DNA of 64,000 bases from Corynespora cassiicola. Taxonomy: Eukaryota > Ascomycota > Dothideomycetes > Pleosporales > Corynesporascaceae. A program made the position numbers and the translations under genes. The notes under the pieces were generated by a model. The model was not told the DNA's origin, made no database searches, and saw only the letters and a program-made list of their open reading frames with translations. This document shows, piece by piece, positions 10,917 through 33,632 of this stretch. The stretch's first letter is position 1; every line of letters begins with the position of its first letter. The stretch lies in the NCBI GenBank assembly GCA_022059125.1, contig JAEUWY010000023.1, positions 186,001 through 250,000 of the forward strand, given 5' to 3'.

Positions 10917-11474
10917 GGTGACGATGTGAAGGCGTGGTGTCTTGAGACGAATAGTCGGTACCCTCAGAATATAACCAGCTGAGGGTTTAAAGATTCTGGG
11001 CGGCGTACGCCAGCAGCGCACAGATCTCCTGTGCTTGTCATAACCTCCCAACGGCAGGTACCGCCGTTGAGCTAGGTTCCAGGGTACTGCGGATCAAGAT
11101 TTTCAGGGCTGCCCATTGGACATCCCGACTGAAGGCCGAACGATAAACGAGAATGGGAAAGACAAGTGGGGGTGTCTCGGTGGTTCTAGGGGAATGTGTG
11201 GGGGGGAACGGCCGAGCGATCAGCGCAATTACTTTAGCCTGTGCTTTGACGCTCCCCTGTCAGTCCCAAAAGAGTATCGCGATGAACATCAGACGGTTGA
11301 GCCTGACCGTTGCACTGGCTGCCCCTTGCAGGCATGTATAAAGATCATTTTCTAGAGCTCAACCTAGCCCTCCACCCTTCAGTCGCTCATTCTTCAAAAT
11401 TATTACGCATTTTGCTCTCTTATCTCTCGTCATTCGTTAATATTTGCTTTGGCTCCTCTAGTAATCACGCCAAG
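10917..11474. promoter_or_regulatory. Divergent promoter region, CFEM receptor / GMC oxidoreductase
   Basis: 558 bp separate the two start codons. A TATAAAG box (11337-11343) stands 132 nt before the GMC start, followed by a pyrimidine-rich leader. No TATA box was obvious on the receptor side. Small frames inside (for example 11116-11355) are not supported as genes. Confidence 0.6.
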
Positions 11475-16902: not shown

Positions 16903-18678
16903 CTACTTATTACTCGGATAAAGATATTCCGTCTGCGCAAAAAACTCCTCCTTGATCAACCTCGGACTCGAAAATCTCAGCAAAACATTCGAACTTCCCG
17001 CCTTATCATTCGTCCCACTCGCCCTACTGCCACCAAAGCTCTGCTGCCCAATAAGCGCAGCCGTAGTCTTACAATCTGCAGGAACCTCGTTAGCTCACCT
17101 TCGCCAATGCTCCAAGGGATGAAACTCACTGATATAAAAGTTGCCCGCAGAGTACCTCAGCGCATCCTCAGCCTCACGAATCGCAGCTCGCGACTGTGCA
17201 AACACAGCCCCCGTCAACGCAAATCCACCACCGGCCTGGTCCACCTTGTCGAGCACGGCGCTCCACTCCGCATCCGGGTACACATAGATGGCCAGCACGG
17301 GGCCGAAAATCTCATAGTTGAAGAGGCGGTGGTCTGGCGAGTCAGCCAAGTAGACGGTCGGCTTCACGTAGAAGCCCTGCGAATCGTCGTAGGTCCCGCC
17401 CGTCAACAGCTTGAGCGAAGGATCCTTGTTGCTCTCATCGATAACGGCCTTGATCTTGTCGAACGACCGGCGGTGGATCACCGGCCCCATGAAGGCCGCG
17501 AGGTCCTTGTCCGGACTCCCAATCGTGATATCCCCGACGTCCTTCAGGAACAGGCCGAGGAACTCGTCGGCGCGCGATTGCGGGAGATACAGCCTCGACG
17601 TCGCCGAGCACTTCTGGCCTTGATACTCAAATGCACCACGCACCGTGTGCTTCGCCGCCGACGCTATATCGGCGCTGGGGTGCACGAGGGTGAAGTTCTT
17701 GCCGCTCGTCTCGCCGACGAGGCGCGGGAACTCGCGGTACGTGTGCTTCCCGATGCCCTCACCGATACGCGCAGACAAGGCGCGGAACACGTCCGACGAG
17801 CCGACGAAGTTGAGGCCGGCGAAGTCGTGGTGCTCGAAGACGACGTCGTTGATGGCCTCTGCGTCGCCGGGCACGAACTGGATCACGTCGGGCGGCAAGC
17901 CGGCTTCGAGCAGGATCTTGTAGACGATGCTGCTGGCGTACACGTTGGAGGGCGAGGGCTTCCACAGGACCACGTTGCCCATGAGGGCCGGACCGGAGAT
18001 TAGATTGCCGCCGATGGCGGTGAAGTTGAAGGGCGAGATGGCGTAGACGAATCCTTCGAGGGGGCGGTAGTCGAGGCGCGACCACATGCCATCGGAGCCT
18101 CGCGTGGGCTGGCGCTCCAGGATCTCGGCGGCATAGTTGCAGTTGAGGCGGAAGAAGTCTGCCAGCTCTGCAGCGGCATCGACCTCGCCCTGCCAGATGT
18201 TTTTGCCCTGGCCGAGCATCGTGGCGGCGATCAGGTCATAGCGGTACTTTGTTGCCACAAGCTCGGCGGCCTTGAGGAAGATGGCGGCGCGGTCTACAAA
18301 GGGCGTCTGCTCCCACGACTTCTTAGCCTTGAGGGCGGACTCAATGGCATTGGCTACTTGCTCCTTGGAAACGAGCGGGTAGTTTGTGAAAGTGGTGGCA
18401 TGCTCGGCCGGGAGAGGTTGGTCCCATGACTTGGATGCTGGCTGCGACTTGCCATTGAAGAGGATGTCGCTCTGGAGAGGCAGCTGGGAGCGCAGCTTCT
18501 TGAGCGACTCTTCTAACTTGGCGCGCTCAGCTGAGCCTTTTTCGTATGTCGGATTGGGTTCATTCCGGGCATCAGGCAACCTGAAGGGCACGGTGGCCTT
18601 GGTGCGGATGTGGATCTGGGGGCGGAAGAGCCGTGCACTGCGGGGGAGGCGGGAGCAGAGAGGTCGAAGGCCCGACAT
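16903..18678 (-). CDS. Delta-1-pyrroline-5-carboxylate dehydrogenase (ALDH4 type), mitochondrial
   Basis: Two exons (18678-17130 and 17075-16903, intron 54 nt) encode 573 aa, the normal length for the family. An Arg-rich N-terminus (residues 1-30, no acids) looks like a mitochondrial presequence. Catalytic Glu323 is in LVGETSGKNF and catalytic Cys357 in FEYQGQKCSATSR. The splice restores NFYINCKTTAALIGQQSFGG and SRASGTNDKAG, the ALDH4 C-terminal signature. It oxidises glutamate semialdehyde (from P5C) to glutamate with NAD+. The same enzyme turns the hydroxylated pyrroline derived from hydroxyproline into 4-hydroxyglutamate in animals. It is divergent from the DHDPS-family aldolase with 369 bp between start codons, so the two are probably co-regulated. 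Its fungal prn-cluster counterpart is prnC. The P5CDH function is secure; the hydroxyproline role is inference from context. Confidence 0.95.
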
Positions 18679-18731
18679 GGTGTCGAATGCTACCCGTGTT
18701 CACAGAGATTCGATTTGGAAGATGTCTTTCC

Positions 18732-18745
18732 CTCTCGATTGAGAG
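18732..18745 (+). promoter_or_regulatory. Candidate regulator site, dyad CTCTCGATTGAGAG
   Basis: Near-perfect inverted repeat (CTCTC-GATT-GAGAG) 54 bp upstream of the P5CDH start. Its first 12 bases recur at 18862-18873. No binding protein is known; it is a candidate because of the exact repetition within one short promoter. Confidence 0.4.
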
Positions 18746-18861
18746 AAGAGGTTCAAGTATTCATGCCCATGTGGATAGATCGGGTTGACAGCCGTGTGCT
18801 CGACACAGCCGTTGATTTCCGTCGAGGGCGGGGGCATTCACGCGTCTCAGGTAGCAAACCG

Positions 18862-18873
18862 CTCTCGATTGAG
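18862..18873 (+). promoter_or_regulatory. Second copy of CTCTCGATTGAG
   Basis: Exact 12-base repeat of the site at 18732, located 174 bp upstream of the aldolase start (19048). Confidence 0.4.
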
Positions 18874-19047
18874 GCCGATATCGACCAAGTGCCACCATCG
18901 GGAGGCCAGCCGAGCGATGGAGCAGGCGGAGAGTTAACAACAACATGTAGGAAAATAAGTATTGCGTCGCACGGCGTGTCTGGAGGGTCGTGACCAGTGC
19001 AGCCTGGTGATATCCGGTGCGAATTCGACGTTCCAGCCCCGTCCGCC

Positions 19048-20019
19048 ATGTCCCCCGTCCCCCCACGCGGCGTCTGGTGCCCAGCCGTGACCTTCTTCGA
19101 TGCAGAGTCGGATGCGCTGGACCTTGAGGCGCAGGCGCGCTACTTCGCCTATCTCTCCACCACGGGCCTGGCAGGGTTGGTGGTGCTCGGGACGAACGCG
19201 GAGACATTCCTCCTGACGCGCGACGAACGCAAGGCCCTGGTCGCCACCTGCCGACGCGCCGTGGGCCCCAGGTTCCCAATCATGGCCGGTGCCGGAGGCC
19301 ATTCGACAGCCCAGGTGCTGGAGCACATATCCGATGCTAGAGACGCGGGCGCAGACTCGGTCCTCGTGCTGCCGCCCGCCTACTTTGGCGCCGCCACCAC
19401 GCCGGCAGTGCTCGAGAACTTTTACGACACCATTGCCGCCCGCAGCGCCTTGCCCGTCGTCATATACAACTTCCCCGGCGTGTGCAATGGCGTCGATCTG
19501 GACTCTGCCTTCATTGCCGCCATGGCCCAGAAGCATGCCAACATTGTCGGTGTCAAGCTGACCTGCGGCTCCGTGGCCAAAGTCACCCGTCTCGCTGCCG
19601 AGCTGCCCAAGGACCGCTTTACAGTCTTCGGAGGCCAGTCCGACTTTCTGCTCGGGGCCCTGAGCTCCGGGGCCGGGGGCTGCATCGCGGCCTTCGCCAA
19701 TGTTTTCCCCAAGACCATTGTTCGCATCTACGATCTTGTGCAGGAGGCCAGGTGGGATGAGGCTCTTGCTCTGCACCAGAAGGCGGCCCTCGCCGAGCAA
19801 CCCATCAAGGGCGGCATTGCGCCGACAAAGTACGCTGCTGCCATACACAGCGCTGCATCTGCCGGTATCAGAGATGCTGCCGCTAAGTTGAAACCGCGCG
19901 CCCCCTATCTGGAACCGGCTACTGCTATCAAGGAGCGCATCAAGGTCACCATGGCAGAGGTCGCTGCCATTGAGAGGAGCCTGCCACCGGTAAATTCGCG
20001 CATATCAGCGAGAATATGA
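19048..20019 (+). CDS. DHDPS/N-acetylneuraminate-lyase family aldolase, candidate 4-hydroxy-2-oxoglutarate aldolase
   Basis: Single exon, 323 aa from the ATG at 19048 (good CCGCC context; an in-frame ATG at 18997 would add 17 residues with no targeting signal). The class I aldolase barrel is shown by LVVLGTNAETFLLTRDE, Tyr140 in VVIYNFPGVCNGVD, the Schiff-base Lys170 in NIVGVKLTCGS, and FGGQSDFL. The family splits pyruvate from 2-keto acids. Human HOGA1 of this family makes glyoxylate and pyruvate from 4-hydroxy-2-oxoglutarate, the last step of hydroxyproline breakdown. Fungal relatives also include the 2-keto-3-deoxy-L-galactonate and L-rhamnonate aldolases (GaaC, Lra4), which sequence alone does not exclude. 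Head-to-head pairing with P5CDH and the nearby PRODH and aminotransferase favour the hydroxyproline role. The C-terminus ARI is at most a weak peroxisomal signal. Confidence 0.85.
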   Translation: MSPVPPRGVWCPAVTFFDAESDALDLEAQARYFAYLSTTGLAGLVVLGTNAETFLLTRDERKALVATCRRAVGPRFPIMAGAGGHSTAQVLEHISDARDAGADSVLVLPPAYFGAATTPAVLENFYDTIAARSALPVVIYNFPGVCNGVDLDSAFIAAMAQKHANIVGVKLTCGSVAKVTRLAAELPKDRFTVFGGQSDFLLGALSSGAGGCIAAFANVFPKTIVRIYDLVQEARWDEALALHQKAALAEQPIKGGIAPTKYAAAIHSAASAGIRDAAAKLKPRAPYLEPATAIKERIKVTMAEVAAIERSLPPVNSRISARI

Positions 20020-20440
20020 ATATCGTTGCCGATGACAGAAGACCAGTTAGACTAGATCAGTGCCGCTTTCAAATGCTATGTCCTTCTCACCTTGACTTCC
20101 CGCTTTTTTTTTTTCCATCATCCGTGAGCTTACAAGCCCGCATCCGAACAGCCACGGCCTGCTTCCCGAGCGTACTCTGAGGCGTGCCGGCGCCTCACCC
20201 GACGCCTACTATGATACACAACAACTGGGGTGCATGCAAGGCCAGGCGGAGACACTACCCCAGACTGATCCTTACGTAGTTTGTGCCAGGGATTCCCAGT
20301 AACTCATTCCAAGCTATGACCGCTGATATCTGCCAGACCAAGATACAAAAATGAGGGAGAAACCATGGTGAAGCCCCCCTCCGCCAGCCTTTCCATCCTC
20401 TTTCCAATTTGCCCTTCATCCACCAGCGTTGTATTGCACA
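20020..20440. promoter_or_regulatory. Aldolase 3' region and permease promoter
   Basis: 421 bp. It contains a T-run (20101-20114) and the dyad TGAGGCG-6-CGCCTCA at 20178-20197. No coding frame is supported. Confidence 0.5.
20178..20197. promoter_or_regulatory. Perfect 7-bp inverted repeat in permease promoter
   Basis: TGAGGCG and CGCCTCA separated by six bases (TGCCGG), 244 bp upstream of the permease start. The symmetry and CGG content suit a dimeric zinc-cluster factor; no binding is known. Confidence 0.35.
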
Positions 20441-22196
20441 ATGGAGGAGAAGAAGAACATCCCCGTCCAGGACAAGCCCTTCGATAGCGCCTCGGACCAG
20501 GACATCTATCGCTCCGACACACATGGCGGATACAGCGTGCACCTGGGCTCCGTCCAGAACACCGATCAACTCCAGCGCCATCTCGGGAACCGTCAGGTTC
20601 AGTTGATTGCCATTGGAGGCTCCATCGGCACGGCCACGTTCGTCAGTATTGCGAATGGCTTGGTCAAGGGCGGTCCCGGCAGCTTGCTCCTGGCGTACAC
20701 GCTCTACTCATGTGTACTCGGCCTGGTCAACAACTGCATGGCCGAGATGGCGTCGTACATGCCCGTGACTGGAGGCTTTATCCGCATGGCTGGACACTGG
20801 GTCGACGAGTCACTCGGCTTTATGGTGGGCTGGAATTTCTTCCTGTACGAGGCGTTCTTGATCCCGTTTGAGATATCTGCACTGAATCTCGTCTTGACTT
20901 TTTGGCGGGACGACATTCCAGTGGCTGCTGTCGTTGCAGCCTGCATCGTATTGTACTTGTGAGTCCAATTTTTCCGGTCAGGAGAAGCCACATGCTGATT
21001 GTCATGGCAGTGCCATCAACGCCTTCGTCGTAAAATGGTACGGTGAAGCCGAATTTTGGCTCGCCCTGGGGAAAGTCGCACTCATTCTGATCCTCTTCTC
21101 CTTCACCTTCATCACCATGGTCGGCGGCAACCCCAAGCACGACGCGTACGGCTTCCGTTACTGGCGCAACCCCGGTTCCTTCGCGGAGTTTATCACTACA
21201 GGAGACCTGGGCCGGTGGGAAGGCTTTCTCGGCGCACTTTGGAGCGCCGCGTTTACCGTCGTGGGGCCCGAGTACGTATCCATGGTGGCCGGCGAGGTCA
21301 AACTTCCACGACGCTACCTCAAGAACGCATTCAAGGCAACGTACGCGCGCTTTGCCTTCTTCTTCATCGGCAGCGCCCTATGCGTCGGCATCGTCATCCC
21401 TTACAACGACGCCACCCTCATCGATATCCTGAGTGGCAGCTCCGAAGGCGCGGGCACAGCTGCTGCATCTCCGTACGTGATTGCTATGCGGAATCTAGGG
21501 ATAGAGGGGTTGCCGCATCTCACGAATGCGCTGCTTGTCACCAGCATCTTCAGCGCTGGGAACGCATATACGTACTACGGGACGCGCTCGCTCTATGGCT
21601 TGGCCATTGAGGGTCAAGCTCCAGCCTTTCTGCGCAAGTGCACAAAAGCTGGCGTCCCGTTGTATTGCCTCTGCATCACGACGCTCTTCCCGTTCCTCGC
21701 ATTCTTGAATGTGTCGAGCGGGAGCGCGAAGGTGCTCACCTGGTTTACCAACATCATCACCGCCGCACAGATCATCGACTACATTGTCATCTGCATCACG
21801 TACCTGTGCTTCTACCGCGCCTGCCGCGCCCAGGCCTTTGACCGACGCTCCATGCCGTACTTTGGACATTTCCAACCTTATTCGGCGTGGATTGGCCTCG
21901 TGTTTCTCACAATGGTTGTGTGCGTGTACGGATACACCGTCTTCTTGCCAGGGCACTGGGAAACTCAGACCTTCTTCACCTACTACATGATGGTACTAAT
22001 CGCACCAGTACTTTTCTGTGGCTGGAAGTTTACCAAAGGAACCAAGTTCATCAGACCCCACGAGGCGGATCTACGATGGGAAAAGGCCGTCATTGACGCC
22101 TATGAAGAGTCGTACTCGGAGGAGGCCGTGGGGTTCTGGACCGAGATTGTGCAAATGTTTGGCTTTCGAAGGCATCGTCGAGACAGCAAGGCGTGA
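20441..22196 (+). CDS. Amino-acid permease (APC superfamily, YAT family)
   Basis: Two exons (20441-20958, 21011-22196; 52-nt intron) encode 567 aa with about 12 membrane segments. The first is marked by QVQLIAIGGSIGTATFVSIA, the YAT hallmark at TM1. CMAEMASYMPVTGGFIRMAG follows in TM3, and YVSMVAGEVKLPRRYLKNAF is the conserved E-x-x-N/K-P-R-K type loop. It imports amino acids across the plasma membrane with protons. The fungal proline permease PrnB belongs here, and placement between the aldolase and aminotransferase genes suggests proline or hydroxyproline as substrate. Specificity cannot be read from sequence. The N-terminal cytosolic tail is short (about 65 residues) and the C-terminal tail ends in basic RRHRRDSKA. 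Confidence 0.92.
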
Positions 22197-22743
22197 TTCA
22201 TGGCTTTGTAGTTTTCTCTTCTTCATATCTACGGCCAAGGAGCAGCGCTGTCGATAGAGAGGGTTTTTAATTGGTGGTTTGGGCTGATGCACTGTACATA
22301 TATGAATAGTGACGAAAGTATTGCGTCAATGAGTTCTCTTTCCTCTTCCTTCGCAGCCCTTCTTTTTGCCGTGTATACTTTAGATACCGCTGCCATGAGG
22401 TACTAAAGAACCGTAGGCTAAGCCTTCGTTGGATGGCATTCTTGGCTCTTGCAAGTCTAACAGCCAAACCAGCTTTGAATTCGGCCCCACTCATCTTGGG
22501 CAAGCCCCAAGCGCTGTGTTCCAACGTATGAGCACTCGCTATGGATTCCGAACCATGGATCAATGGCTAAAAGTCATCTCGGAACCCATCCCGGCCCGGA
22601 AATGTTAGATCTTTGCATAGTAACAGCGAATCCGTATCGTCGGATATGGTATAAGTCGTTCGTTGTCGATATCATCGCCGGTAATTTGAATTCGGGTTGC
22701 AGCGCTTGACTTTAGAACTTGAATAGGCAAAATTTATTTCAGT
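22197..22743. promoter_or_regulatory. Permease 3' region and aminotransferase promoter
   Basis: 547 bp without a supported gene. A 98-codon antisense frame (22267-22563) has no family resemblance. Confidence 0.5.
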
Positions 22744-24289
22744 ATGTTTCGAACTGTGCCTGCAGGCCCTCCGGACCCGGTTTTCATTCTCAAGAATGCA
22801 GCGGATGCAGATTTGTCGAATGAAAAAATCGACCTGGGTGTTGGAGTTTACCGAAATGAAGAGGGCAACTTTCATGAATTGGAAGTGATTAAGAAGGTCA
22901 GTGGTCCCTCTCCCTTCTTATTTACAATAAATGAGGACTACACAGTACCTGAAAAACTTCACAGGCAAAGAAGATATTATCTGGGCAAAACCTGGGTCAC
23001 GATGTGAGGACACCCGACTTTTCAGCCTTCGTGCTGGGCTGATGGGCAATAGTATGAGGTAACGACTGGTGGTCCGGCATTCGTGGAGCGCGCATCGCAT
23101 GTCCTATTCGGTCTTGACTCGTTAGCAATCAAATCTCGAAGGGTTAGTCCATATATGCCATCTCGCTGGCAAAATATTTTTTTTGATGCACATATAGGTC
23201 ACATCTGTACAAGCAATCTCGGGTACAGGGTCCATCCACTTGGCTGCATTGTTTCTAAGCCGCTGCGCCGCGATCAAAGACCGAAAAGTCTATGTAGGAA
23301 CTCCAGCCTGGGGAAACTATGAGCCGCTTTTCAACTTGGTCGGGCTGTCAGTGGCCACCTACCGGCACTACGATCCCGCAAGTGCGTCCGTGGACTTCGA
23401 AGCTCTTGAAAAAACCACGTCGGAAGCTCCCCAGGGTAGTATTTTCGTACTGCAGGGCTGCTGCCACAATCCATCTGGTGCCGACCTCACCAAAGAACAA
23501 TGGCAAACGCTAGCTCGCATCATGCAGGAGAGGAAATTGTTCCCTTTGTTCGACATGGCCTACCAAGGTCTTGGAGACTCCCTCGCGGACGATGCCTACG
23601 GACTCAGGCTGTTCACCGAAATGAATCTTGAACTGGTCGCGTGCCAATCATTCTCGAAGAACTTTGGAATTTACGGTGAGAGATGTGGAGTTCTCCACGT
23701 GGTCAGCGAAGCGGAGGCCGTGGCCGGAAATGTCTACGATCAACTTCGATGTTTGATCCGGTGGGAATTTTCATCTTCGCCGGCGTATGGGTCCCGGCTG
23801 GTAAACATCATTCTTGGAGACGAAGAGTTGCGCCGACAATGGTACGTCGCTGACTCGCCTTGTTCCCCCAGCTAACGTCCAGGTAGGGCCGATGAACTGG
23901 AAAAAATGAGGCAGCGGCTCGCGCAGAATCGGAAATTGCTCTACGAAGCACTGGTGGTGAAGCATGACGTACGCATCCACCCCGTCGTCCCACAATGGCG
24001 TGCACTGACCCAACGGCCGCAGACTCCCGGAAAGTGGACCTCGATATTATCGTCCAAAGGCCTGTTCTGGTAGGAGTCCCTGCCTCTCACTCTTTTACGA
24101 CTGACCGACGAACTGTCCAGTTTTCTCCCTCTGCGGCCCGAGGAGTGCGCAAGCCTGCAGGCGCATCACCACGTCTACATGCTCAAGAGCGGGCGAATCA
24201 ATGTGTCAGGACTGAATCGGACGAACATTGGGCGGATGGCGTCGGCGATCGACCAAGTCGTCAGGGAGAGAACAACGTCCCGACTGTAG
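22744..24289 (+). CDS. Aspartate-type aminotransferase (PLP class I), ends in peroxisomal signal SRL
   Basis: Seven exons (22744-22896, 22965-23003, 23053-23142, 23198-23841, 23887-23968, 24023-24069, 24121-24289) encode 407 aa, the family length. Conserved blocks are IDLGVGVYRNEEG, QAISGTGSIHLAALF, CCHNPSGADLTKEQW, FDMAYQGLGD, SFSKNFGIYGERCG (PLP Lys248) and GRINVSGLN with the carboxylate-binding Arg. It transfers the amino group between aspartate or glutamate analogues and 2-oxo acids. In hydroxyproline breakdown such an enzyme turns 4-hydroxyglutamate into 4-hydroxy-2-oxoglutarate. There is no mitochondrial presequence, and the last three residues are SRL, a good PTS1 tripeptide. Six introns of 45-68 nt, including exons of only 39 and 47 nt, make automated models likely to be wrong here. 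It is tandem with the permease and the regulator. Confidence 0.9.
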
Positions 24290-24817
24290 TGCCGGAGATA
24301 GGTGCCCGGGCTCCAGAGCGGACATGCTGTTGAGTCGTTCCAGCCGTGGCCGTGCGATAGAGGTGCATGACGGTGGTCGCGCGGTTGGCGCGGGTGAGTG
24401 TCCGATGGAAGAGTCAGTGATCGGGCGGCCTCCCGGTGGACAGCGGCGCTAACCCAGAGAGGTGATCAGAACCCGCCATGGAAAAACGACAGAAGAAATG
24501 GCCGGACTTGGAGGCTCAGGGCATTTCGAAGACGTAAGTGCGTCATCCGAGTCATTCAGTTCCACGAACTGTGTCTCTCAGAGTGAATCACGTGACCGTC
24601 CAAATCCTCATCTCCACAATTTCCCCGCAAACGTCTGCATTTGGTGACTTGTGTGATGGCCTCTGGGCCCAGCAGAGCGACGCACAAGCTCTAGTGCTTC
24701 ATCACTTGACCACATCGGATCAGTCCGTATCATCACCACGGCCAGCCCCGCTTTGGTACCCCACTTTGGGAAGGCCCTCACACTGCGCCGGCGGACGACC
24801 ATGGCCAACACCATACG
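24290..24817. promoter_or_regulatory. Aminotransferase 3' region and regulator promoter
   Basis: 528 bp. Short frames (for example starting at 24478) do not lead by any consensus splice into the zinc cluster, so they are not taken as exons. Confidence 0.5.
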
Positions 24818-27346
24818 ATGGCCAACACCAGCGACCAGCGGCGAGTGAACAAGCGGTCTCCTAATGCGTACGTCCAGAGAGTCGAGCATGGCATGATACA
24901 CGTCTAACCAGAGGGACGCCACACAGCTGCACGCGGTGCCGAAGACAAAAGATCAAATGCTCCGGGCTGCAGCCATGCGCAAACTGCAGCCGGCGGAGCC
25001 TGGCTTGCATATTTGACGATCGAGACAATAAGATCTTAGTCACACAGGGGTAACGATATTGGGCCTTTTGCAACCGTCGAGGAGCCGTGCTAACACGCTG
25101 TTGAGCTATCTCGCCGATCTCCAAGCAAAACTCGCACGACTGGAGCAGAGCCAACGCGGCGAGTCGAGTGCCAGCATCTCACGCCCACAACAGCCGCAGC
25201 CGCCGCCGCAGCAGCAACAGCAGGATGACCCTCAGAATGCAGAGAGACACGAGGTGGAAGAGCAGCATGTCCAGCCCACGATGCGATCAAGCCCCGAGGG
25301 GACCAGAGAGAGCTCCCCGGGGCGGGAGCAACCCAACCCTGATGGAACAGACCTGACGAATCCATTGATCGAATCGCCCTCCAAGTTCATGGCATCGTCA
25401 ACTGGTAGGCCATGTAAGTCTGCCCCTCCCTGCAGCGCAGAAACATATTTGACGCTCTCGAGTCTATCTTGGGACCTCTTCCAATTGGTCGTTTCACGGA
25501 CAGATTCTAAACTTGGTTCACGAGCATATTCACAAGTCACCTCTCCCTGGCGCTGATTTGCTTTTTGATGGGTCTGCGTACGATCTTCCCTGGGATGGAT
25601 GTCGGAGTTTGCCCGAGTCGAGCACCCCTATCATTCCTAGCATCGACTATGCCATCTTTCTCATCAATGCCGTCAAGTTTCATTGCGCCCAGCTTGTACA
25701 TTTGTTTGATGAGGATGAGTTCATGGCCAATTTGCACAGATTCTATTCCACCTCAGATAATAGGGCTCCCAAAGAGAGTCTATGGTATATACATTTTCTG
25801 CTCATCATCGCTTTTGGAAAGACGTTTGTTCAGCACAAGCAGCATGCCCCTAGGCCTCCGGGCGCCGACTTTTTCATCCAGGCTCTGCAGCTTCTTCCAG
25901 ATACCACTCGCCTCTGCCGAGAGCCAGTCATGGCAGTAGAGGTGCTCTGTTGCATATCTTTGTACCTGCAGGCGCTCGATTCTCGCAACGCAGCTCATGC
26001 GACGGTAAGCAACCAGATGTTACCAAAGGCTGTGGACGTTGATGATTACAGATGGGACAAGCGATGCGCATCGCTTTAGCGCAAGGCATGCATACAGATA
26101 TGCCCGTGGTCGACCTTGGCGAAGCCCTCGTCCAACGGTGTCGAAAGATCTGGTGGACTGTCTACTTTTTGGACCGACAAATGACATCGCTAATGGGCCT
26201 ACCACAATCAATACAGGACGTAGATATAACCTGCCAGCTTCCGACCTTCTCAGGCTCAGTGCAGCGAGCTGCTACACTGAATATGCAGATCAAGCTAGCG
26301 CGAATCTATGCCGAAATCTCACGGAGTGAGTCTGTTCGCAATTCACCCCGTCTCAATGCTAAAATCCCTCCTCTAGCTGTATATGGTGCTACTGGAAGAC
26401 TGCGTAGGAAATTTGTAGTCAATATCAAAGCTGCGTTGGACAGCCTGGCACCACTTGCCGAAGAACTGAGACACTCTTTTCCTTTGCATGCTGACGAGCG
26501 ATTTGGCGGGATTTCCAGAATGCCGGCGCATTTGCATCTTCTGTACTACCAGGTCTGTCCATGAACGAGAACCACGTATGAATCACCACTAATACAGAGC
26601 AGAGCATTGTAGTCGTGACTAGACCTTTGTTGTTTTGCTGCTTGAAGAAGGTTTTCCAATCGCCACGTGAGGTGGAACCACTGGTTTCATCGCGGAAAAT
26701 CAGGCATCTACTTCACATGTCATTAGAGGCGTCGCAAAAGATTGTTGACATTCTCGAAAACCTACAAAATCAAGACCTTCTTGGTAGGATGTTCTCCCTG
26801 TTGACTGTCAACCACACTGACATTTGCATAGAAACATTCCTTCCATGGGATCTTGATGCCCTTTTTGTTTCCACAATGGTCTTTACTCTTACGAGATTTG
26901 TCGACCCCAGTCTCTTCGAGAACCATGCCATGTGGCTGGGGAAGGCATTTGGCTTCTTGGAGACTATGAAGCTGAGCGGCAACAGGATCGCACAGTTCCG
27001 GACAGTTGAGCTGCGAAAACTAGACGAAATGTTGGCAGAGTATCCATTCACTCAAGTTCGTCCATCGACAGCGTCCACTGTGGCAGTAGGCCAAATGAAT
27101 GCGAATTCGCAGAATGTAGCAGCAGGTCTTACGTTTTCAGAGAATGGTCACTCGTCAATGGGCATGCTTCCATCTAGAGATGCAATACCATACTATGAGT
27201 TCAGTGACGAGAGCGTTGGATTCGGTGAAGACTTGACGGCTGAACAGATTTTGGCGGTTGCTGAGTCCATGGATATCGAAAATACTGACTGGTTGTCTTT
27301 TGCAACGATGGAGAATTTCCAAATGGATGAATCGAACGACATGTAA
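24818..27346 (+). CDS. Zn2Cys6 transcription factor with fungal-specific middle homology region
   Basis: Seven exons (24818-24867, 24927-25049, 25106-25413, 25463-26004, 26052-26325, 26377-26552, 26603-27346) encode 738 aa. The first splice forms NACTRCRRQKIKC; the six Cys are C18, C21, C28, C34, C37 and C44, exactly CX2CX6CX5CX2CX6C. A linker and coiled coil follow (GYLADLQAKLARLEQ), then a Gln/Pro-rich stretch. The middle homology region contains YLGTSSNWSFHGQ, MRIALAQGMH, RKIWWTVYFLDRQ and VYGATGRLRRKF. An acidic C-terminus (EFSDESVGFGEDLTAEQIL) may be the activation domain. It sits in the middle of the amino-acid catabolic genes, as PrnA does in the Aspergillus proline cluster, and is the obvious candidate pathway regulator. 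Whether it answers to proline or hydroxyproline is unknown. Confidence 0.9.
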
Positions 27347-27435
27347 ATTGACTCTCATTTGCTGGCTTCCATAGAATATCTTGATACGAAATTGGACTAT
27401 TAATATATCTACCAACCTTGAAACCAAGTCAAAGC

Positions 27436-28793
27436 CTACAGCTTCGACTTTGGCGTAGTGATATCCCGCAATTCCTTCACATCACCTATCCGCCAACTCA
27501 CATCACCATCGTCGGCCTGTGACGCACCTGACGAGCTCTTCCAGCGCCACCTAGAAATCTCCTGCACATTATCCGGCGCTTTCAAAAGATTGTGAACCCA
27601 CCTCCCAACAATGGGAAACATCTTGAACCCATGCCCAGAGTCCCCAGACAACACCATGACCGACGAAGAAGTCTCTGGAACATAATCCACAATAAAATCC
27701 GAATCCGCCGTATCCGCAAACCAGCACAACGACTTCTCCACCAACGGCCGGTCCGCAAGATGCGGCAGCGTCTGCCGGAGCAGCTCCCGCATCTTCACCT
27801 CATCGTGCTCAGGCACGAACCGACTCTGCGCCAACCCCTCGGGCGCCTCCGACACTCCGGTCGCGGGATTCGTATTCACATACCCGCCCCCCATCGGACA
27901 CAGCTTGAGCAGATTAGTCTTGGGATCGGGCTCGAAGAAGAAGCCCAGATCGCGCGCATACGTGACGGGAATGCCGCGCAGGGCCGACGTCTCCTCGTCG
28001 CTGAGCCGCACGTGCGCCACGGACCACGACTTCGCCGCCACGCTGGCTCCCAGCTGCGGGACCAGCTTTCCCGCGCCCGCGCCCACGGCGACGATGACGA
28101 GCGCGCTGGGCCGCACCTCGCCGTCTGCCGTCCGCACGCCCACGCTCCTCCGCCCCGAGGGCGTGTCTGCGTACACGATCTCGCGCACGGCGCCGACGCG
28201 CGCGCCGAGGAAGAAGCGCACGCCGTTGGACCGCGTGGCGCGGTAGACGCCCCGCAGCGCGTCCGCAGAGTGCACGTAGCCGTCGTACCGGTTGAAGTAG
28301 CCCCTCCAGCCCGGAAGCTCGCCCTGGAACTGCCAGCAGAGGGCCTGGATGGCGGGCCGGTCGGAGACGGTGGAGACGAAGGGGGCCATGGCGGGATGGC
28401 GCTCTGCGGCGGCTTGGAAGCGCTTCATTGTGTCGGCGGCTTTTTGCGGGGCGTTGCCCGAGACGCAGTTTAGGAAGCCGACGCGGTGGAAGTAGGGGGC
28501 GTAGAGGGGGGTTTGCCATTCTTTGGTGGCTTCCTGGAGGGGTGTCAGGGTTGGGGGGTAGCTCTGGAGGTGAAAAGACGTACAACGGCTAGGTCGGTGT
28601 AGAAGTCGTCTTCGTATTCGGCGCGCATGATCTTGTTCAAGTCGTTTGCTGCTGACCATCGCGATGGAATGTCCGAGTCTTTCTCGAAGACTGTGATGTT
28701 TGTGTAGCCCTGCTTGGAAAGTTCGAGGGCGGTGGACAGGCCGAATGCGCCGCCGCCGATGATGCTAATCGGATCGCTTTTAGACAGAGTCAT
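27436..28793 (-). CDS. Peroxisomal FAD-dependent amine oxidase (sarcosine/pipecolate/fructosyl-amino-acid oxidase family)
   Basis: Two exons (28793-28584, 28533-27436; 50-nt intron) encode 435 aa. The dinucleotide motif is IIGGGAFGLSTALELSKQG. The splice creates FYTDLAVEATKEWQTPLYAP, typical of the family. Cys in KSLCWFADTADSDF matches the residue that covalently holds FAD in sarcosine and Amadori oxidases, and GDSGHGFKMFPIVGRW is the C-terminal FAD block. The protein ends in SKL, the canonical PTS1, so it should act in peroxisomes and release H2O2. Members oxidise secondary amines such as sarcosine, L-pipecolate, proline analogues or glycated amino acids. In this cluster a cyclic imino acid (hydroxyproline stereoisomer, pipecolate, proline) is a reasonable guess. 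It is divergent from the orphan gene with 459 bp between starts and convergent with the regulator gene (89 bp between stop codons). Confidence 0.88.
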
Positions 28794-29252
28794 GGTGAAA
28801 GGACAGTGTTGCAAGATTGTGATCCCGGGGAACTGATTGAGGGATGCTACGTCGATGCTCGCTGCATATATTGATATCTCAAGGCGGGCTTACTCACTTT
28901 CGCCATGTGGTGCGTTTGATGCACCACCCCGGTACGTAATTCCGAAGGTCCCGTTTATTCCGAACAAGATTAACATGCATCGGAACGGCAGACGAGGCTA
29001 CATCTGCACTAAGATCAACATGATAGTCAGACGTGTCACGCATCCAAATCGGACATGTTTCCGCTGCCTGGCTCGGCTACCCGACCGGTGCATGCATTCT
29101 GCTACCCAAAGCGGTATTCCTGCATTTGGGCAATTATCTGGGTACCACGGTGAGTGGTTTCTCGGAATTCGTGGCCGGGCTGAGAAGAGCAAGATCAAAC
29201 GCATTCTACTGTAGACATCTGTGCTCTTGGTTCTGTCATTTCATTTTTCATC
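28794..29252. promoter_or_regulatory. Divergent promoter, FAD oxidase / orphan gene
   Basis: 459 bp between start codons. Contains GATTGAG at about 28834 on +, a partial match to the motif in the P5CDH/aldolase promoter. No gene is supported. Confidence 0.5.
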
Positions 29253-30229
29253 ATGGCGCAGGGTGTAGTGCCTCATCAACTCTCGAACCGACTGAAAGAA
29301 GACACTTTGTTGCGAGAACTCGCGGGAGATTTGTTTGCAGCCTCGATATCTGCAAGTAGTATTGCCCCGATCATTACGGCAATTGATAGGTCAGTGCTCT
29401 TGGCCAAAGACCTTCAAGTCTCCAGGCCGTTCTAGTAGAATGATGATTCGTATATTGTCAGAGTGAACTAATTTACAACAGGGCTGTTGTTGAAAATGCT
29501 GCTTGTAGTAAATTCTCTCTCGTTTCAACACTGAAATCCCACATCATCAGCTCATTCCGACACCCAAGACTGTTTTTCAGCGCAAAGCCGTTTTTCATTG
29601 TGTGGACGCTGTACGCTGCTACATACACGACGGCCAATGTCACTGAGACCGTGTTTAGAGCATTTTCTCAGAAGAGAGATGAGGTTTTAGTTGGCTCCAT
29701 CACATTTCTGTCAACATGCCTTGTCAATGTTCCGCTGGGGGTTTGGAAAGATATTCGATTTGTTCAAGCATATGGGAATGCAAGGTTGCCGAATCCAGTT
29801 CTGCGAGGGAAAGAGCTGCCATCCTCAATCGTTCAACCATCGAGTGCTTCACTGCCTCGAGTTCCAAAAGTCGTCGGAGCAACGTTTCTCATTCGAGATG
29901 CAATAACCATTCTGGGTTCATTTACACTGCCATCTGTGCTGTGTGAACCTATCCCAGATACTGTTTTATCAAACCCAGTCATCAAGGCTGCAGCTGCACA
30001 GCTCATCGTACCCATCTTCTCGCAGGTATTCGCAACACCGGTACACATACTTGGTTTGGACCTCTATAATCATCCTCAGGCACAAACACGCGAGCGGATG
30101 TCTCGGATTAGAGAAAACCTCGGTCCTACGACTGCAATGCGGTGTTTCAGAATCATACCCGCTTTTGGGGTTGGGTGTATCATGAATACAAACTTGCGCA
30201 GATATTTCCACAAAGCGGCAGGAGGGTAG
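29253..30229 (+). CDS. Conserved fungal membrane protein of unknown function
   Basis: Two exons (29253-29389, 29482-30229; 92-nt intron) encode 294 aa. I recognise the general look of a conserved fungal family with no assigned function. The N-terminal region RELAGDLFAASISASSIAP is followed by TAIDRAVVENA across the splice. Then come FFIVWTLYAATYTTANVTET, TFLSTCLVNVPLGVWKDIRF, and a C-terminal REN-x-GPTTAMRCFRIIPAFGVG block. Several segments are hydrophobic enough to span or associate with a membrane, and small-residue-rich repeats recall mitochondrial inner-membrane proteins, but the carrier signature PxD/E-x-x-K/R is not evident. It lies between the FAD oxidase and the proline dehydrogenase, so it could be a transporter or assembly factor for the pathway. 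Confidence 0.75.
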
Positions 30230-30752
30230 CGTAGAGAATAAATATGTATCCAGCATGAATGCTAGATTTCCTACTTCCGATTTTAATGTTGTGATAAAGA
30301 GTGAAAAAAATTCATGAACTGAAAACTCTAAGCTCGCTATGGAGAAGCTTCAGTGCATGATCATCCGCTTGGTCAGTTGGTAATACGAGCAAGGTGCATC
30401 TCGAGTGTCAGCCCCGCGTTACCCCTCCATGGACAACACAATCGAGTCGCTTATCTCCCGATACTATCCTTATCAAGTTGCACTCGAACTAATCAAGTGA
30501 GCTGTACAATATAGGTATTCCCATCCCTTCCAATCGGCGCGCTGGCCGACTGATCACCAACCAATGTATGACCTCGCGGCCAGACGCGATACCCCACGTT
30601 GAGCGGGGTAAGTCGCTACGGAAGAGCAGGCAGAGAATGCGATGCGTCAATGGAAGCTTGGAAAGAATGTATATGTAGATGAGCACTATCAAAATCGTGT
30701 TGCACCATTCTCTCACTGTATTCGTCAACCTCGATCATACGCATCTGAAACA
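30230..30752. promoter_or_regulatory. Orphan-gene 3' region and proline dehydrogenase promoter
   Basis: 523 bp. Contains the dyad TACCCC-9-GGGGTA at 30590-30610. An in-frame ATG at 30642 upstream of the chosen start is possible but adds 37 residues that do not look like a targeting peptide. Confidence 0.5.
30590..30610. promoter_or_regulatory. Inverted repeat TACCCC / GGGGTA in PRODH promoter
   Basis: Six-bp arms, nine-bp spacer, 143 bp before the start codon. It contains CGGGG. C4-rich palindromes are also typical of stress-response elements, so the regulator is open. Confidence 0.3.
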
Positions 30753-32251
30753 ATGAAGACTCACACTCGACTCAAGATCCCTCCATTCAGATTTATCATG
30801 TACCGCGGAATATCTAGTAGAGCAGGCGCCAGCTCCGCGATAAGGCGCTCGTCTACTGTTGTGGCTCGAGTGAAGGATGAAAAGCTCCTGGACACGGCTT
30901 CCTCCTCGGATGTCCAAACACTACAGAAATTCCCGCTTTCTGGCATGCCAAACAACATGCTGGTTAGATCTCTTTTCGTCTCCACAATTTCTTCTCATCG
31001 GATGCTTCTTGTTCCATCGTTGTATCTGCTTTCGTTCTTGGCAGATCCGAAACGAAGCTTCTTGTTCAACATTGAACGAAACCCTGTTCTACATGGCATC
31101 CTCAAAAGAACCATGTACAACCAGTTTTGTGCGGGAGAGACGGAAAAGGAAACGAGATCGTGTGTTCGACAGCTGAAGGATCTTGGATTTCGAGGGGTCA
31201 TTCTGACCTACGCTAAAGAGATTGTTTTCAACCACCAGACCAAAGTTTCGCACCACCTAAGCAACCATTCGGGAGACTCGGCAAAGAACCCCGCTGCCAC
31301 CGACACCGACTCCAACATTGAAGCATGGAGAGTGGGAACACTGAACACGGTGGATTTGATTGACGAGGGGGATATTCTAGCAATCAAGTAAGTCCACCAA
31401 TCGAACAAAGTCGAATGACATATTGATGCGGATCAAGGATGACAGGGGCTGGCCCTTCGGTTGCGGATTCCTTCAACAAAGGCGAACTTCCGCAGCAGCA
31501 GATGCTCGATGCACTTGACGAGATTGCGACAAAGTGCAAGGAGCGTGGTATTCAGATCATTGTGGATGCCGAATCCCAACACTTCCAGAAGGGAATCGCA
31601 CGTGTCACTCTGGAGCTTATGCGGAAGTTCAACCGGCAAGAACGCGTTGTTATCTACAACACTTACCAAGCATATCTCAAGAGCACGCCTTCAGTTCTAG
31701 CTGGTCACTTAGCCGAGGCCGAAAAGGATGGATTTACTCTAGGGTTGAAGCTCGTCAGAGGCGCGTACATTTTATCGGACGACAGGTCCCTAATTCACGA
31801 CACGAAACAAGACACCGACGATGCTTACAATGGAATTGCCCAAGGAGCACTCCACTGCCATATTGGCAATTTTGGAGGCGAGGGGCCCGGATCTCGACCA
31901 TTTCCTTCAGTCAATCTCTTCCTCGCAAGTCACAACAGAGACAGCGTTATCACAGCACGGCGACTACAGCAGCAAAGGCTGAGCGCAGGGCTACCCACCG
32001 TACCTGTGGCATTCGGGCAGCTGCACGGAATGTCGGATGAAGTGAGCTTTTCGCTTTTGCAAGAGAAGGGCGAAGATCAGGCTTCGCCTGATGTCTTCAA
32101 ATGCTCGACCTGGGGGACCATGGGAGAGTGCATCGGATATCTGCTGCGGAGAGCTGTGGAGAACCGGGATGCGGTCTTACGGACAAGCGATGAATTTAAT
32201 GCCCTGAAACAAGAGGCGAGGAGGCGAGTTCGATCGGTGTTCTTTACATGA
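30753..32251 (+). CDS. Proline / hydroxyproline dehydrogenase (PRODH family), mitochondrial
   Basis: Two exons (30753-31387, 31438-32251; 50-nt intron) encode 482 aa. The N-terminal 40 residues are basic and hydroxylated without acids, fitting a mitochondrial presequence. The FAD barrel shows AIKMTGAGPSV, IIVDAES, YNTYQAYLKST, LKLVRGAY, ASHNRDSV, FGQLHGMSD and the substrate helix GYLLRRAVEN (Tyr446, Arg449, Arg450). The reaction is FAD-linked oxidation of L-proline to P5C, or of trans-4-hydroxyproline to the 3-hydroxy analogue. Twelve residues before Tyr446, the position of PutA Tyr540 (Ser in human hydroxyproline dehydrogenase PRODH2), this protein has Cys434. That loss of Tyr is compatible with hydroxyproline use, but may be common to filamentous-fungal PRODHs. 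The prn-cluster counterpart is prnD. Confidence 0.93.
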
Positions 32252-32664
32252 CGGCCATCGGAATCGATGATCAAGTTCTGAGATGCGTCATCACGTGCCC
32301 TGCATGAATGTCATGTGTGATGCCGTGTGAGATCCGCGAATCTTGCGCCAGAATAGACAAGAAAGGTTCGCCGTGAGACTTTGAGACTTTGAGACTTTTA
32401 GCGCCTGTAGTTGTAAAATAGCTGGTAGCAGTACCTTTCGGCTAACGCTGTTCGCGTGGCAAGTCTCGGAACCTCGCGGTATCTGTGTGCGAATCGGGTA
32501 AGTGGGGTCGGAACCATTCCCGACCGCTGCTAACCGACCATGCAATTCTGATCTGGCCGCTCACGTCTCTGGTAGCTCAGTATAACGCCTTTGCCTTCTG
32601 CTGCTGCTTCTTTATATGATCTGGAAAGGTGCAAATTCCTGAATTGCAGACTCGATCAAACACC
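32252..32664. promoter_or_regulatory. PRODH 3' region and P5C reductase promoter
   Basis: 413 bp with a short tandem repeat (three copies of TGAGACTT, 32374-32397). No coding frame is supported. Confidence 0.5.
32374..32397 (+). repeat. Three perfect copies of the 8-mer TGAGACTT
   Basis: Contiguous head-to-tail copies about 270 bp upstream of the P5C reductase start. Could be a multi-site promoter element or a simple microsatellite. Confidence 0.6.
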
Positions 32665-33632
32665 ATGGCTAAATCAGCGGTTTGCATTTTGGGCTGCGGT
32701 ATGACATCCCCTCGTCTAACAATTGCATGCCTCGCTGATCTCTCTTGTTGACAGGCAACTTGGGCTCGGCCATTCTTAGAAGCTTGGTCAATTCCTCCGA
32801 TAATGAAGCAAATGAGCGATTCGGCGTTTTCACCGCTTGTGTTCACAGCCAATCGTCGGAACAAAGATTAACAGAGACCTTCGCTGCCCAGGTCGAGTCG
32901 GGAAAGGTCGTCATATCCCGTGGAGACAACGCCAAGGCCGTTCAACAATCAGACATCATCATCCTCGGAGTTGATCCCGCAGACGTTCAAGATACCTTGC
33001 AGCAAGAGTCCATCGCCGAGGCACTGCAAGGCAAGCTACTCATCAGCGTTGCCGCCGGTTGGAAAAGGGAAAAGCTGGAAAGCCTGATCCCATCTACTGG
33101 ACTAGCGTCGAATCAGAAAGAAAGAACATGGGTACTCCGTGTTCTTCCCAACATTGCAGCTGTTGCATCCGAATCTCTTACCGCTATCGAAGAACCACAC
33201 CGGGATACGCCTAGCTCGTACACCGACATCACTGATTCCATCTTTAAGCAGATTGGAGAGACCGTGCGGGTTGCCCCCCGCTTGATGAATGCTGCGACTG
33301 CTGTGGGAGGCTCGACGCCGGCATTTTTTGCGGTCATTTGCGATGCGCTTATTGACGCTTCCGTTGCTGTCGGCGTGCCGAGGGCGACCGCTCAGGCCAT
33401 GATTTACCAAAGTATGAAGGGTACAGCGGCGATGCTACAAAGCGGCATGCACCCAGGAATTCTTAAAGATCAGGGGACTTCGCCAGAGGGTTGTACGATA
33501 GGCGGTCTTATGGTACTCGAGGAAGCAGGCACGCGCGGTCATATTGGTAGAGCTCTTCGGGAAGCAGTTACCATTGCTCGGTTGATGGAGAGTGAAAAGG
33601 ACGAACTTCACGTGAACGACACGAGACAATAG
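32665..33632 (+). CDS. Pyrroline-5-carboxylate reductase
   Basis: Two exons (32665-32698, 32755-33632; 56-nt intron) encode 303 aa. The tiny first exon carries the first half of the NAD(P) motif; splicing gives CILGCGNLGSAILRSL. Further blocks are ILGVDPADVQ, LLISVAAGWKREKLE, VLRVLPNIAAVASES, and the C-terminal dimer domain AATAVGGSTPAFFAVICDALIDASVAVG with SPEGCTIGGLMVLEEAG. It reduces P5C to proline with NAD(P)H and can also reduce the hydroxylated pyrroline back to hydroxyproline. A biosynthetic reductase inside a catabolic cluster is odd. It may recycle the intermediate, or reduce pyrroline-2-carboxylate or another cyclic imine made by the neighbouring FAD oxidase. Substrate choice cannot be decided from sequence. 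Confidence 0.92.

What the first reader, a model, noticed from the sequence alone, without database searches (positions are those of the whole stretch)
16903..33632. Nine-gene cluster with all enzyme classes for trans-4-hydroxyproline catabolism
Contiguous genes encode P5CDH, a DHDPS-family aldolase, an amino-acid permease, an aspartate-type aminotransferase, a Zn2Cys6 regulator, a FAD amine oxidase, a conserved orphan, a PRODH-family enzyme and P5C reductase. The animal hydroxyproline route uses exactly PRODH2, ALDH4A1, GOT2 and HOGA1, which are the families of four of these. The known Aspergillus prn cluster covers only regulator, permease, PRODH and P5CDH. The aldolase and aminotransferase have no role in plain proline use but are the two missing hydroxyproline steps. 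End products would be pyruvate and glyoxylate. Hydroxyproline is abundant in plant extensins and animal collagen, so this would be a nutritional system.
Basis: partly seen in the sequence, partly recalled or inferred. Interest (0 to 1): 0.88.

Follow-up and report, generated by a model that had tools for sequence, protein, structure and literature searches.

The report
Fungal gene cluster for eating hydroxyproline
A leaf-infecting fungus carries nine neighbouring, apparently co-regulated genes that together look like a complete route for using hydroxyproline, an amino acid abundant in plant cell walls and animal collagen, as food; the step chemistry is inferred, not yet measured.

Summary
The nine genes are real: eight have open spliced models at the stated coordinates; the regulator's middle exons are unresolved. 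The genome is Corynespora cassiicola or very close. PRODH, P5CDH and P5C reductase here are second copies, the aminotransferase a third. Two new results support one functional unit. (1) The inverted repeat CGG-N8-CCG, a known type of Zn2Cys6-factor site, lies in 7 of 7 promoter-bearing gaps (11 sites; shuffles average 0.67 gaps); it is 4 times rarer in the cluster's coding DNA and 9-15 times rarer elsewhere. (2) Public protein lists show aldolase, aminotransferase and PRODH on contigs of identical length in other fungi (all three on 7), with similar gene spacing in Pleosporales, and PRODH-P5CR adjacency in 19 of 120 PRODH hits. Hydroxyproline catabolism to pyruvate and glyoxylate is the best reading (about 0.7). 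Against it: no substrate is tested; two other paralogues are closer to HOGA1 than the cluster aldolase; active-site residues and the PRODH substrate-gate residue do not discriminate; the oxidase and orphan have no clear role. One Fusarium homologue of the aminotransferase is annotated fused to an unrelated pyruvate aldolase, which fits the same chemistry. Seven searches of an open-access library found no such fungal cluster.

The parts
16903..18678 (-). P5C dehydrogenase, second copy (exons 18678-17130 and 17075-16903, 573 aa); N-terminus of mitochondrial type (7 K/R, no D/E in 30 residues)
   Evidence: TIGR01236 697.6 bits; other copy 55% identical at C5:1811540-1812945
19048..20019 (+). DHDPS-family (class I, Lys) pyruvate aldolase, single exon, 323 aa; proposed 4-hydroxy-2-oxoglutarate aldolase
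   Evidence: PF00701; close relative of PDB 3qfe; active-site columns
20441..22196 (+). Amino-acid permease, PF00324 (exons 20441-20958, 21011-22196)
   Evidence: 368 bits
22744..24289 (+). Aspartate-type aminotransferase, 7 exons, 407 aa; proposed 4-hydroxyglutamate aminotransferase
   Evidence: (NF006719 419 vs 377 bits); paralogues at 42% and 38%
24818..27346 (+). Zn2Cys6 transcription factor; middle exon structure unresolved
   Evidence: PF00172; PF04082
27436..28793 (-). FAD-dependent oxidase related to fructosyl-amine oxidases (exons 28793-28584, 28533-27436)
29253..30229 (+). Orphan, 294 aa (exons 29253-29389, 29482-30229), no Pfam match; one paralogue in the genome
30753..32251 (+). 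Proline dehydrogenase family enzyme, second copy (exons 30753-31387, 31438-32251); N-terminus of mitochondrial type; Cys434 at the PutA Tyr540 position
   Evidence: other copy C23:1246727
32665..33632 (+). P5C reductase, second copy (exons 32665-32698, 32755-33632)
   Evidence: other copy 37% identical
18781..18794 (.). CGG-N8-CCG site, P5CDH/aldolase shared promoter
18899..18912 (.). CGG-N8-CCG site, P5CDH/aldolase shared promoter
20155..20168 (.). CGG-N8-CCG site, permease promoter
20188..20201 (.). CGG-N8-CCG site, permease promoter
22580..22593 (.). CGG-N8-CCG site, aminotransferase promoter
24391..24404 (.). CGG-N8-CCG site, regulator promoter
24422..24435 (.). CGG-N8-CCG site, regulator promoter
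29050..29063 (.). CGG-N8-CCG site, FAD oxidase/orphan shared promoter
29074..29087 (.). CGG-N8-CCG site, FAD oxidase/orphan shared promoter
30535..30548 (.). CGG-N8-CCG site, PRODH promoter
32509..32522 (.). CGG-N8-CCG site, P5C reductase promoter

Best explanation
A co-regulated nutrient-utilisation cluster for 4-hydroxyproline. The permease takes up hydroxyproline. PRODH oxidises it to 3-hydroxy-pyrroline-5-carboxylate and P5CDH oxidises that to 4-hydroxyglutamate, both probably in the mitochondrion. The aminotransferase makes 4-hydroxy-2-oxoglutarate and the DHDPS-family aldolase splits it into pyruvate and glyoxylate, probably in the cytosol. A Zn2Cys6 protein, most simply the cluster's own, switches the genes on through CGG-N8-CCG sites. 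P5C reductase may return excess (hydroxy)P5C to the ring form, as a relief valve. Shown: genes, families, paralogue counts, shared sites, linkage in other fungi. Inferred: every substrate, the compartments, which factor binds the sites, and the roles of reductase, oxidase and orphan.
For: All four enzyme families of the animal route sit together. Extra copies: 2 PRODH, 2 P5CDH at 55%, 2 P5CR at 37%, 3 aspartate-type aminotransferases; the other PRODH (C23, over 1 Mb away) and P5CDH (C5) have none of the other cluster genes in the 9.9 kb read around each, by eye. CGG-N8-CCG in 7 of 7 promoter gaps, 11 sites in 3,349 bp (3.3/kb) against 0.75/kb in the cluster's coding stretches, 0.21/kb in the rest of the window and 0.36/kb in 99 kb of other loci; every other spacer from 0 to 20 gives 2 sites or fewer. 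Linkage elsewhere: 19 of 120 listed aldolase hits share an exact contig length with a listed aminotransferase or PRODH hit, three on contigs of 30-51 kb, all three genes on 7; in 7 gene-pair comparisons from 5 species, locus-tag spacing equals the window's in 3, is one larger in 2 and differs in 2. PRODH and P5CR in one gene model in 19 of 120 PRODH hits. Aldolase keeps Lys196, Tyr168, Tyr140 and Asn78 of HOGA1, with Thr at Ser77 and Ser198 (residue roles PMC3188589, passages). Fusarium homologue P0356 joins the aminotransferase to an HpcH/HpaI pyruvate aldolase.
Against: No substrate or expression data. HOGA1 groups with paralogues L004 and L006 (support 93/91, under the tool's 95/80 mark, long-branch warning), and these keep HOGA1's Ser77, so they match it at 5 of 6 residues against 4 of 6 for the cluster aldolase. 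L003 and L007 have the same six residues as the cluster aldolase. Loss of the PutA Tyr540 equivalent is general: 119 of 121 PRODH rows have Cys, 2 Ser, and the genome's other PRODH has Cys. PRODH relatives occur in Aspergillus and Penicillium, so this enzyme may serve plain proline. P5C reductase is odd in a catabolic set. CGG-N8-CCG is also the reported site of the Aspergillus cellulase regulator ClrB (PMC8313289, passages), so another factor could bind here. Relatives of the HpcH/HpaI part of P0356 include sugar-acid aldolases. In Diaporthe the aldolase-aminotransferase spacing is 6, not 2. Linkage could be looked for only among the 120 best hits of each list.
Confidence: 0.7

Rival explanations
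1. A prn-type proline-utilisation cluster that has gained an aldolase and an aminotransferase; the physiological substrate is proline, the aminotransferase only handles glutamate, and the aldolase is an accreted passenger.
For: Regulator, YAT permease, PRODH and P5CDH are the core of the prn set (PMC5983819, passages). PRODH relatives occur in Aspergillus and Penicillium.
Against: PrnA-type CCGG sites are almost absent: 1 palindrome in 7 gaps (2 strand counts), none of the direct-repeat type. The aldolase and aminotransferase promoters carry the same CGG-N8-CCG sites as the rest. Aldolase-aminotransferase linkage recurs in Diaporthe. A separate PRODH and P5CDH exist.
Confidence: 0.13
2. Catabolism of another 4-substituted proline or 4-substituted glutamate (for example from plant or fungal metabolites), with the same last steps giving pyruvate plus another 2-oxo acid.
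For: The same four reactions would fit; the FAD oxidase of the fructosyl-amine/sarcosine oxidase group could release the amino acid from an N-substituted form (inference).
Against: Hydroxyproline is much the commonest such compound (established knowledge); nothing seen in the sequence points to a rarer substrate.
Confidence: 0.1
3. The aldolase acts on 2-keto-3-deoxy sugar acids from pectin or rhamnose and is unrelated to its neighbours; the CGG-N8-CCG sites are ClrB-type sites of plant-wall growth.
For: DHDPS-family members in fungi include such aldolases (recalled); the genome holds nine family loci, the cluster's included (pieces within 1 kb counted as one); the active-site residues do not discriminate; ClrB is reported to bind CGG-N8-CCG (PMC8313289, passages).
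Against: Shared divergent promoter with P5CDH carrying two CGG-N8-CCG sites; linkage with the aminotransferase and PRODH in other fungi.
Confidence: 0.05
4. The bacterial type of hydroxyproline route (epimerase, D-hydroxyproline oxidase of the DAO family, DHDPS-family deaminase, ketoglutarate-semialdehyde dehydrogenase).
For: A DAO-family oxidase and a DHDPS-family enzyme and an aldehyde dehydrogenase are all in the cluster.
Against: The dehydrogenase is a P5CDH equivalog and scores 166.5 bits against a 770 cut-off for a ketoglutarate-semialdehyde dehydrogenase model. The one racemase-family gene found in the genome is unlinked on C7 and has Thr in place of the second Cys, as recalled for trans-3-hydroxyproline dehydratases. 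The oxidase is closest to fructosyl-amine oxidases among solved structures.
Confidence: 0.02

Closest known systems
Aspergillus nidulans prn (proline utilisation) cluster
   Same: Zn2Cys6 regulator, amino-acid permease, PRODH and P5CDH in one co-regulated cluster (PMC5983819, passages)
   Different: Adds aldolase, aminotransferase, P5C reductase, FAD oxidase and orphan; none of the Pfam matches is of a prnX type (prnX family recalled); CGG-N8-CCG sites instead of CCGG-type PrnA sites
Animal hydroxyproline pathway (PRODH2, ALDH4A1, GOT2, HOGA1)
   Same: The same four enzyme families and order of reactions (HOGA1 step: PMC3188589, passages; the other enzyme names recalled)
   Different: Gene cluster with its own regulator and permease; aldolase not the closest relative of HOGA1 in the genome; last two steps probably cytosolic (inference); extra reductase and oxidase
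DHDPS-family protein of known structure, PDB 3qfe
   Same: Solved structure of a very close relative of the cluster aldolase (451.8 bits, residues 4-312 aligned); source organism Coccidioides immitis is recalled
   Different: Deposited as a putative DHDPS-family protein, no function in the molecule name; its genome context was not seen
Bacterial hydroxyproline clusters (epimerase, oxidase, deaminase, semialdehyde dehydrogenase; recalled)
   Same: Same nutritional purpose; three shared superfamilies
   Different: Different intermediates; no epimerase in the cluster; dehydrogenase is P5CDH

Membership tests
prn-type proline cluster | Zn2Cys6 regulator, amino-acid permease, PRODH and P5CDH contiguous or nearly so | tested here: met
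   all four within the nine genes:
prn-type proline cluster | PrnA sites CCGG-N-CCGG or CCGG-N6/7-CCGG in structural-gene promoters | tested here: not met
   One palindrome in PERM>AAT only, no direct repeats in 7 gaps
prn-type proline cluster | Induction by proline | not testable with these tools
   no expression data
Animal-type 4-hydroxyproline route | PRODH, P5CDH, aspartate-type aminotransferase and DHDPS-family aldolase all present | tested here: met
Animal-type 4-hydroxyproline route | Aldolase orthologous to HOGA1 | tested here: not met
   HOGA1 groups with L004 and L006, not with the cluster aldolase (93/91, long-branch caution)
Animal-type 4-hydroxyproline route | HOGA1 catalytic and substrate residues (Lys196, Tyr168, Tyr140, Ser77, Asn78, Ser198) | tested here: inconclusive
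   4 of 6 identical, Ser77 and Ser198 are Thr; same in L003 and L007; L004 and L006 match 5 of 6
Animal-type 4-hydroxyproline route | PRODH lacks the Tyr that enforces proline over hydroxyproline | tested here: inconclusive
   Cys434 aligns with PutA 540, but 119 of 121 PRODH rows have Cys and 2 Ser
Animal-type 4-hydroxyproline route | Activity on hydroxyproline intermediates | not testable with these tools
   needs enzyme assays
Bacterial-type hydroxyproline route | Epimerase (PF05544) linked | tested here: not met
   single genome hit at C7:217190, unlinked
Bacterial-type hydroxyproline route | Ketoglutarate-semialdehyde dehydrogenase | tested here: not met
   P5CDH equivalog; 166.5 vs 770 bits

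The most novel reading that the evidence does not exclude
A widespread Pezizomycotina regulon for hydroxyproline, controlled through CGG-N8-CCG by its own Zn2Cys6 factor, in which the route is split between mitochondrion and cytosol and the final aldolase has been recruited more than once from unrelated folds (DHDPS type here and in Diaporthe, HpcH/HpaI type next to the same aminotransferase in Fusarium), and in which a linked PRODH-P5C reductase pair sets up a hydroxyproline/P5C cycle.
Probability: 0.25. Interest if true: 0.72.

Novelty: new variant of a known kind. Interest (0 to 1): 0.55.

Why it matters
If right, it gives a gene set for hydroxyproline use in filamentous fungi (none found in the seven searches aimed at it; open-access papers only), proposes a function for a solved but unassigned aldolase structure (3qfe), ties a CGG-N8-CCG regulon to one cluster, and gives direct knockout and enzyme tests for whether plant-wall or collagen hydroxyproline is a fungal food source.

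Tried and rejected
Tyr540-type specificity as proof of hydroxyproline use: dropped, because Cys is general in the compared PRODHs. Aldolase as HOGA1 orthologue: not supported. CGG-N8-CCG as a new kind of site: dropped, since three papers name it for other Zn2Cys6 factors, as ClrB's putative site, as a possible GliZ site and in a fragment bound by BcSpd1 (PMC8313289, PMC4006717, PMC9280406; passages). PRODH-P5CR 'fusion' as a real bifunctional enzyme: set aside, because 14 of the 19 fused models lack the Arg pair of PRODH that 101 of the other 102 rows keep and junctions differ in the six read in full; read as adjacent genes merged by annotation. Orphan as a mitochondrial carrier: my guess; not supported (no Pfam match; profile search of solved structures gave one match at E 0.72 to an unrelated protein; the AlphaFold model of one exon from two sequences had mean pLDDT 34.4 and was not used). 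Paralogue neighbourhoods as a guide to which DHDPS genes are pectin or rhamnose aldolases: eight regions fetched, six of them around DHDPS genes, frames read by eye, no clear answer. Permease substrate: no test found. Amine-oxidase substrate: unresolved. Literature: ten searches in all; seven aimed at a fungal hydroxyproline cluster or aldolase, the others at prn genes (40), PRODH specificity (52) and the DNA site (72). PMC12333218, PMC9108488, PMC10138971 and PMC8779045 were seen as passages only; two report a '4-hydroxy-2-oxoglutarate aldolase' transcript change in a fungus, none a cluster. Limits: the linkage test matches exact contig lengths in lists of 120 hits, not contig names; shift controls give 0.03-0.06 matches on average, at most 2. 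The 189 dyads are not independent (palindromes and extended forms are counted apart). Eight aminotransferase hits under 340 aa were left out of the tree.
Full report
What is there. The window lies at C23:186001-250000 of a 44.35-Mb genome in 23 contigs. The best aldolase hit, 98% identical, is from Corynespora cassiicola Philippines, and the best aminotransferase hit, 94%, from the same, so the genome is that species or a very close one. Nine genes run from 16903 to 33632: P5CDH (-), DHDPS-family aldolase (+), amino-acid permease (+), aspartate-type aminotransferase (+), Zn2Cys6 regulator (+), FAD oxidase (-), orphan (+), PRODH (+), P5C reductase (+). I resolved introns by hand for eight; all frames are open. 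The regulator has both its domains but its middle exons are unresolved.

Paralogues. PRODH has two copies in the genome (36% identical to each other), P5CDH two (55%), P5C reductase two (37%), the aminotransferase two further relatives (42% and 38%), the orphan one further relative (39%). The other PRODH lies on the same contig over 1 Mb away, the other P5CDH on C5; in the 9.9 kb read around each I saw, by eye, none of the other cluster genes. So the cluster holds spare copies of the proline enzymes plus an aldolase, which is what a route dedicated to something other than plain proline would need.

One regulon. I compared 189 spaced patterns in the seven promoter-bearing gaps. CGG-N8-CCG occurs in 7 of 7; 200 dinucleotide shuffles averaged 0.67 gaps and none reached 7; 5000 base shuffles averaged 0.95 sites, at most 6, against 11. 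There are 11 sites in 3,349 bp of gaps (which includes the 89-bp convergent gap, with none): 3.3 per kb, against 0.75 per kb in the cluster's own coding stretches, 0.21 per kb in the rest of the window and 0.36 per kb in 99 kb of ten other loci of the genome. Spacers 0 to 20 other than 8 give at most 2 sites. A flanking T or A is favoured (14 of 22 half-sites). No such site lies between the cluster's ends and the nearest neighbours (15378 on the left, 38901 on the right are the next). CGG-N8-CCG is a known kind of Zn2Cys6 site: it is reported for the cellulase regulator ClrB and named for two other factors (passages). The cluster's own regulator is the simplest candidate, since its promoter carries two sites, but a ClrB-type factor is not excluded. 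PrnA-type sites are nearly absent.

Conservation. The protein lists (120 best each of 1713, 1427 and 6540 hits) carry contig lengths. Exact matches: aldolase-aminotransferase 15, aldolase-PRODH 11, aminotransferase-PRODH 10; 19 of 120 aldolases have a partner; shift controls average 0.03-0.06. All three share one contig length in 7 cases. Three partners lie on contigs of 30,260, 30,313 and 51,325 bp; the rest are on longer contigs, where sharing a contig is weaker evidence. Locus tags give order in 5 species: Paraconiothyrium (aldolase-PRODH 6), Paraphaeosphaeria (aminotransferase-PRODH 4) and Kalmusia (aldolase-aminotransferase 2) equal the window; the two Kalmusia distances to PRODH are one larger; both Diaporthe species have 6 where the window has 2. 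Of 120 PRODH hits, 19 are annotated as one protein with a P5C reductase 46-69% identical to the window's. Of these 19, 14 lack the Arg pair of PRODH, against 1 of the other 102 rows, so I read them as neighbouring genes merged by annotation.

Chemistry. HOGA1 residues were mapped by alignment to the 3s5o sequence, anchored on Ser77; the six other reference residues fell where the paper puts them (PMC3188589, passages). The cluster aldolase keeps Lys196, Tyr168, Tyr140 and Asn78, with Thr for Ser77 and Ser198. The paper reports that S198T keeps turnover with a 7-fold higher KM. But L003 and L007 have the same six residues, L004 and L006 match HOGA1 at one more, and in the tree HOGA1 falls with L004 and L006 (93/91, long branches). 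So the aldolase is a plausible but unproven 4-hydroxy-2-oxoglutarate aldolase, and not HOGA1's orthologue. Its close relative 3qfe is a solved structure without assigned function. For PRODH, a profile alignment puts Cys434 on PutA residue 540, the Tyr that favours proline over hydroxyproline (PMC3718742 citing Ostrander et al., passages); Cys is found in 119 of 121 rows, Ser in 2, so this permits but does not indicate hydroxyproline use. P5CDH and PRODH have basic, acid-free N-termini (7 and 6 K/R, no D/E in 30 residues); aldolase (1 K/R, 5 D/E) and aminotransferase (3, 5) do not; a mitochondrion/cytosol split is inferred.

A convergent hint. One Fusarium oxysporum relative of the aminotransferase, P0356 (49% identical, against 42% for the nearer paralogue in this genome), is annotated as one protein with an HpcH/HpaI-type aldolase (PF03328), whose best solved relatives are 4-hydroxy-2-oxo-heptanedioate aldolases, with sugar-acid aldolases further down. 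In a tree of 112 of the 120 hits, rooted on this genome's other two aminotransferases, P0356 joins the window's enzyme in a clade of 97 with weak support (0.62). A pyruvate aldolase of an unrelated fold beside the same aminotransferase fits a 4-hydroxy-2-oxo acid product. It is a single case and could be a chance neighbour.

Known and new. The prn cluster has regulator, permease, PRODH, P5CDH and prnX; its review (2018) knew of no other permease of that family clustered with catabolic genes, and did not exclude more (PMC5983819, passages). The animal route has the same four enzyme families. Seven searches aimed at a fungal hydroxyproline cluster or aldolase found none; most subscription papers are not in that library. 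I therefore call it a new variant of a known kind: a fungal nutrient-utilisation cluster, with known enzyme families in a new, co-regulated set.

What stays open: every substrate; which factor binds the sites; the FAD oxidase (nearest fructosyl-amine oxidases); the orphan; the reason for P5C reductase; and whether this PRODH also serves proline, since its relatives are also in Aspergillus and Penicillium. After checking, I left the odds as they were and lowered interest by 0.01, because the site type is already known.

Noticed in passing
L040:1456-2793 (G000:C7:217190-218299, - strand): The one proline-racemase-family gene found in the genome, unlinked; second motif has Thr instead of Cys, as recalled for trans-3-hydroxy-L-proline dehydratase, so the genome may also use 3-hydroxyproline.
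   Followed up: partly
PRODH residue 434 (window 30753-32251) and 120 homologues: The compared PRODHs have Cys (119 of 121 rows) or Ser (2) at the position of PutA Tyr540, which favours proline over hydroxyproline; such fungal PRODHs may in general accept hydroxyproline.
   Followed up: partly
Protein P0356 (Fusarium oxysporum): Aspartate-type aminotransferase annotated as one protein with an HpcH/HpaI pyruvate aldolase.
   Followed up: partly
Proteins P0133, P0146, P0168, P0170, P0179, P0206 and 13 more; P0129: Public PRODH-P5CR chimeric gene models, 14 of 19 without the PRODH Arg pair, and a PRODH-only protein (P0129) named pyrroline-5-carboxylate reductase; probably annotation errors that reveal gene adjacency.
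   Followed up: partly
window 35930-36289: UstYa-like match just below the Pfam cut-off (24.7 vs 25 bits), right of the cluster; an MFS transporter follows at 37822-39335.
   Followed up: no
window 11465-16590: GMC oxidoreductase and cytochrome P450 genes left of the cluster; no CGG-N8-CCG site in the gap before P5CDH.
   Followed up: no
L036 (G000:C5:6217000-6226900): Another DHDPS-family gene lies in a locus with ten CGG-N8-CCG matches, the most of ten control loci, near an aldo/keto-reductase-like and a kinase-like frame (by eye).
   Followed up: no
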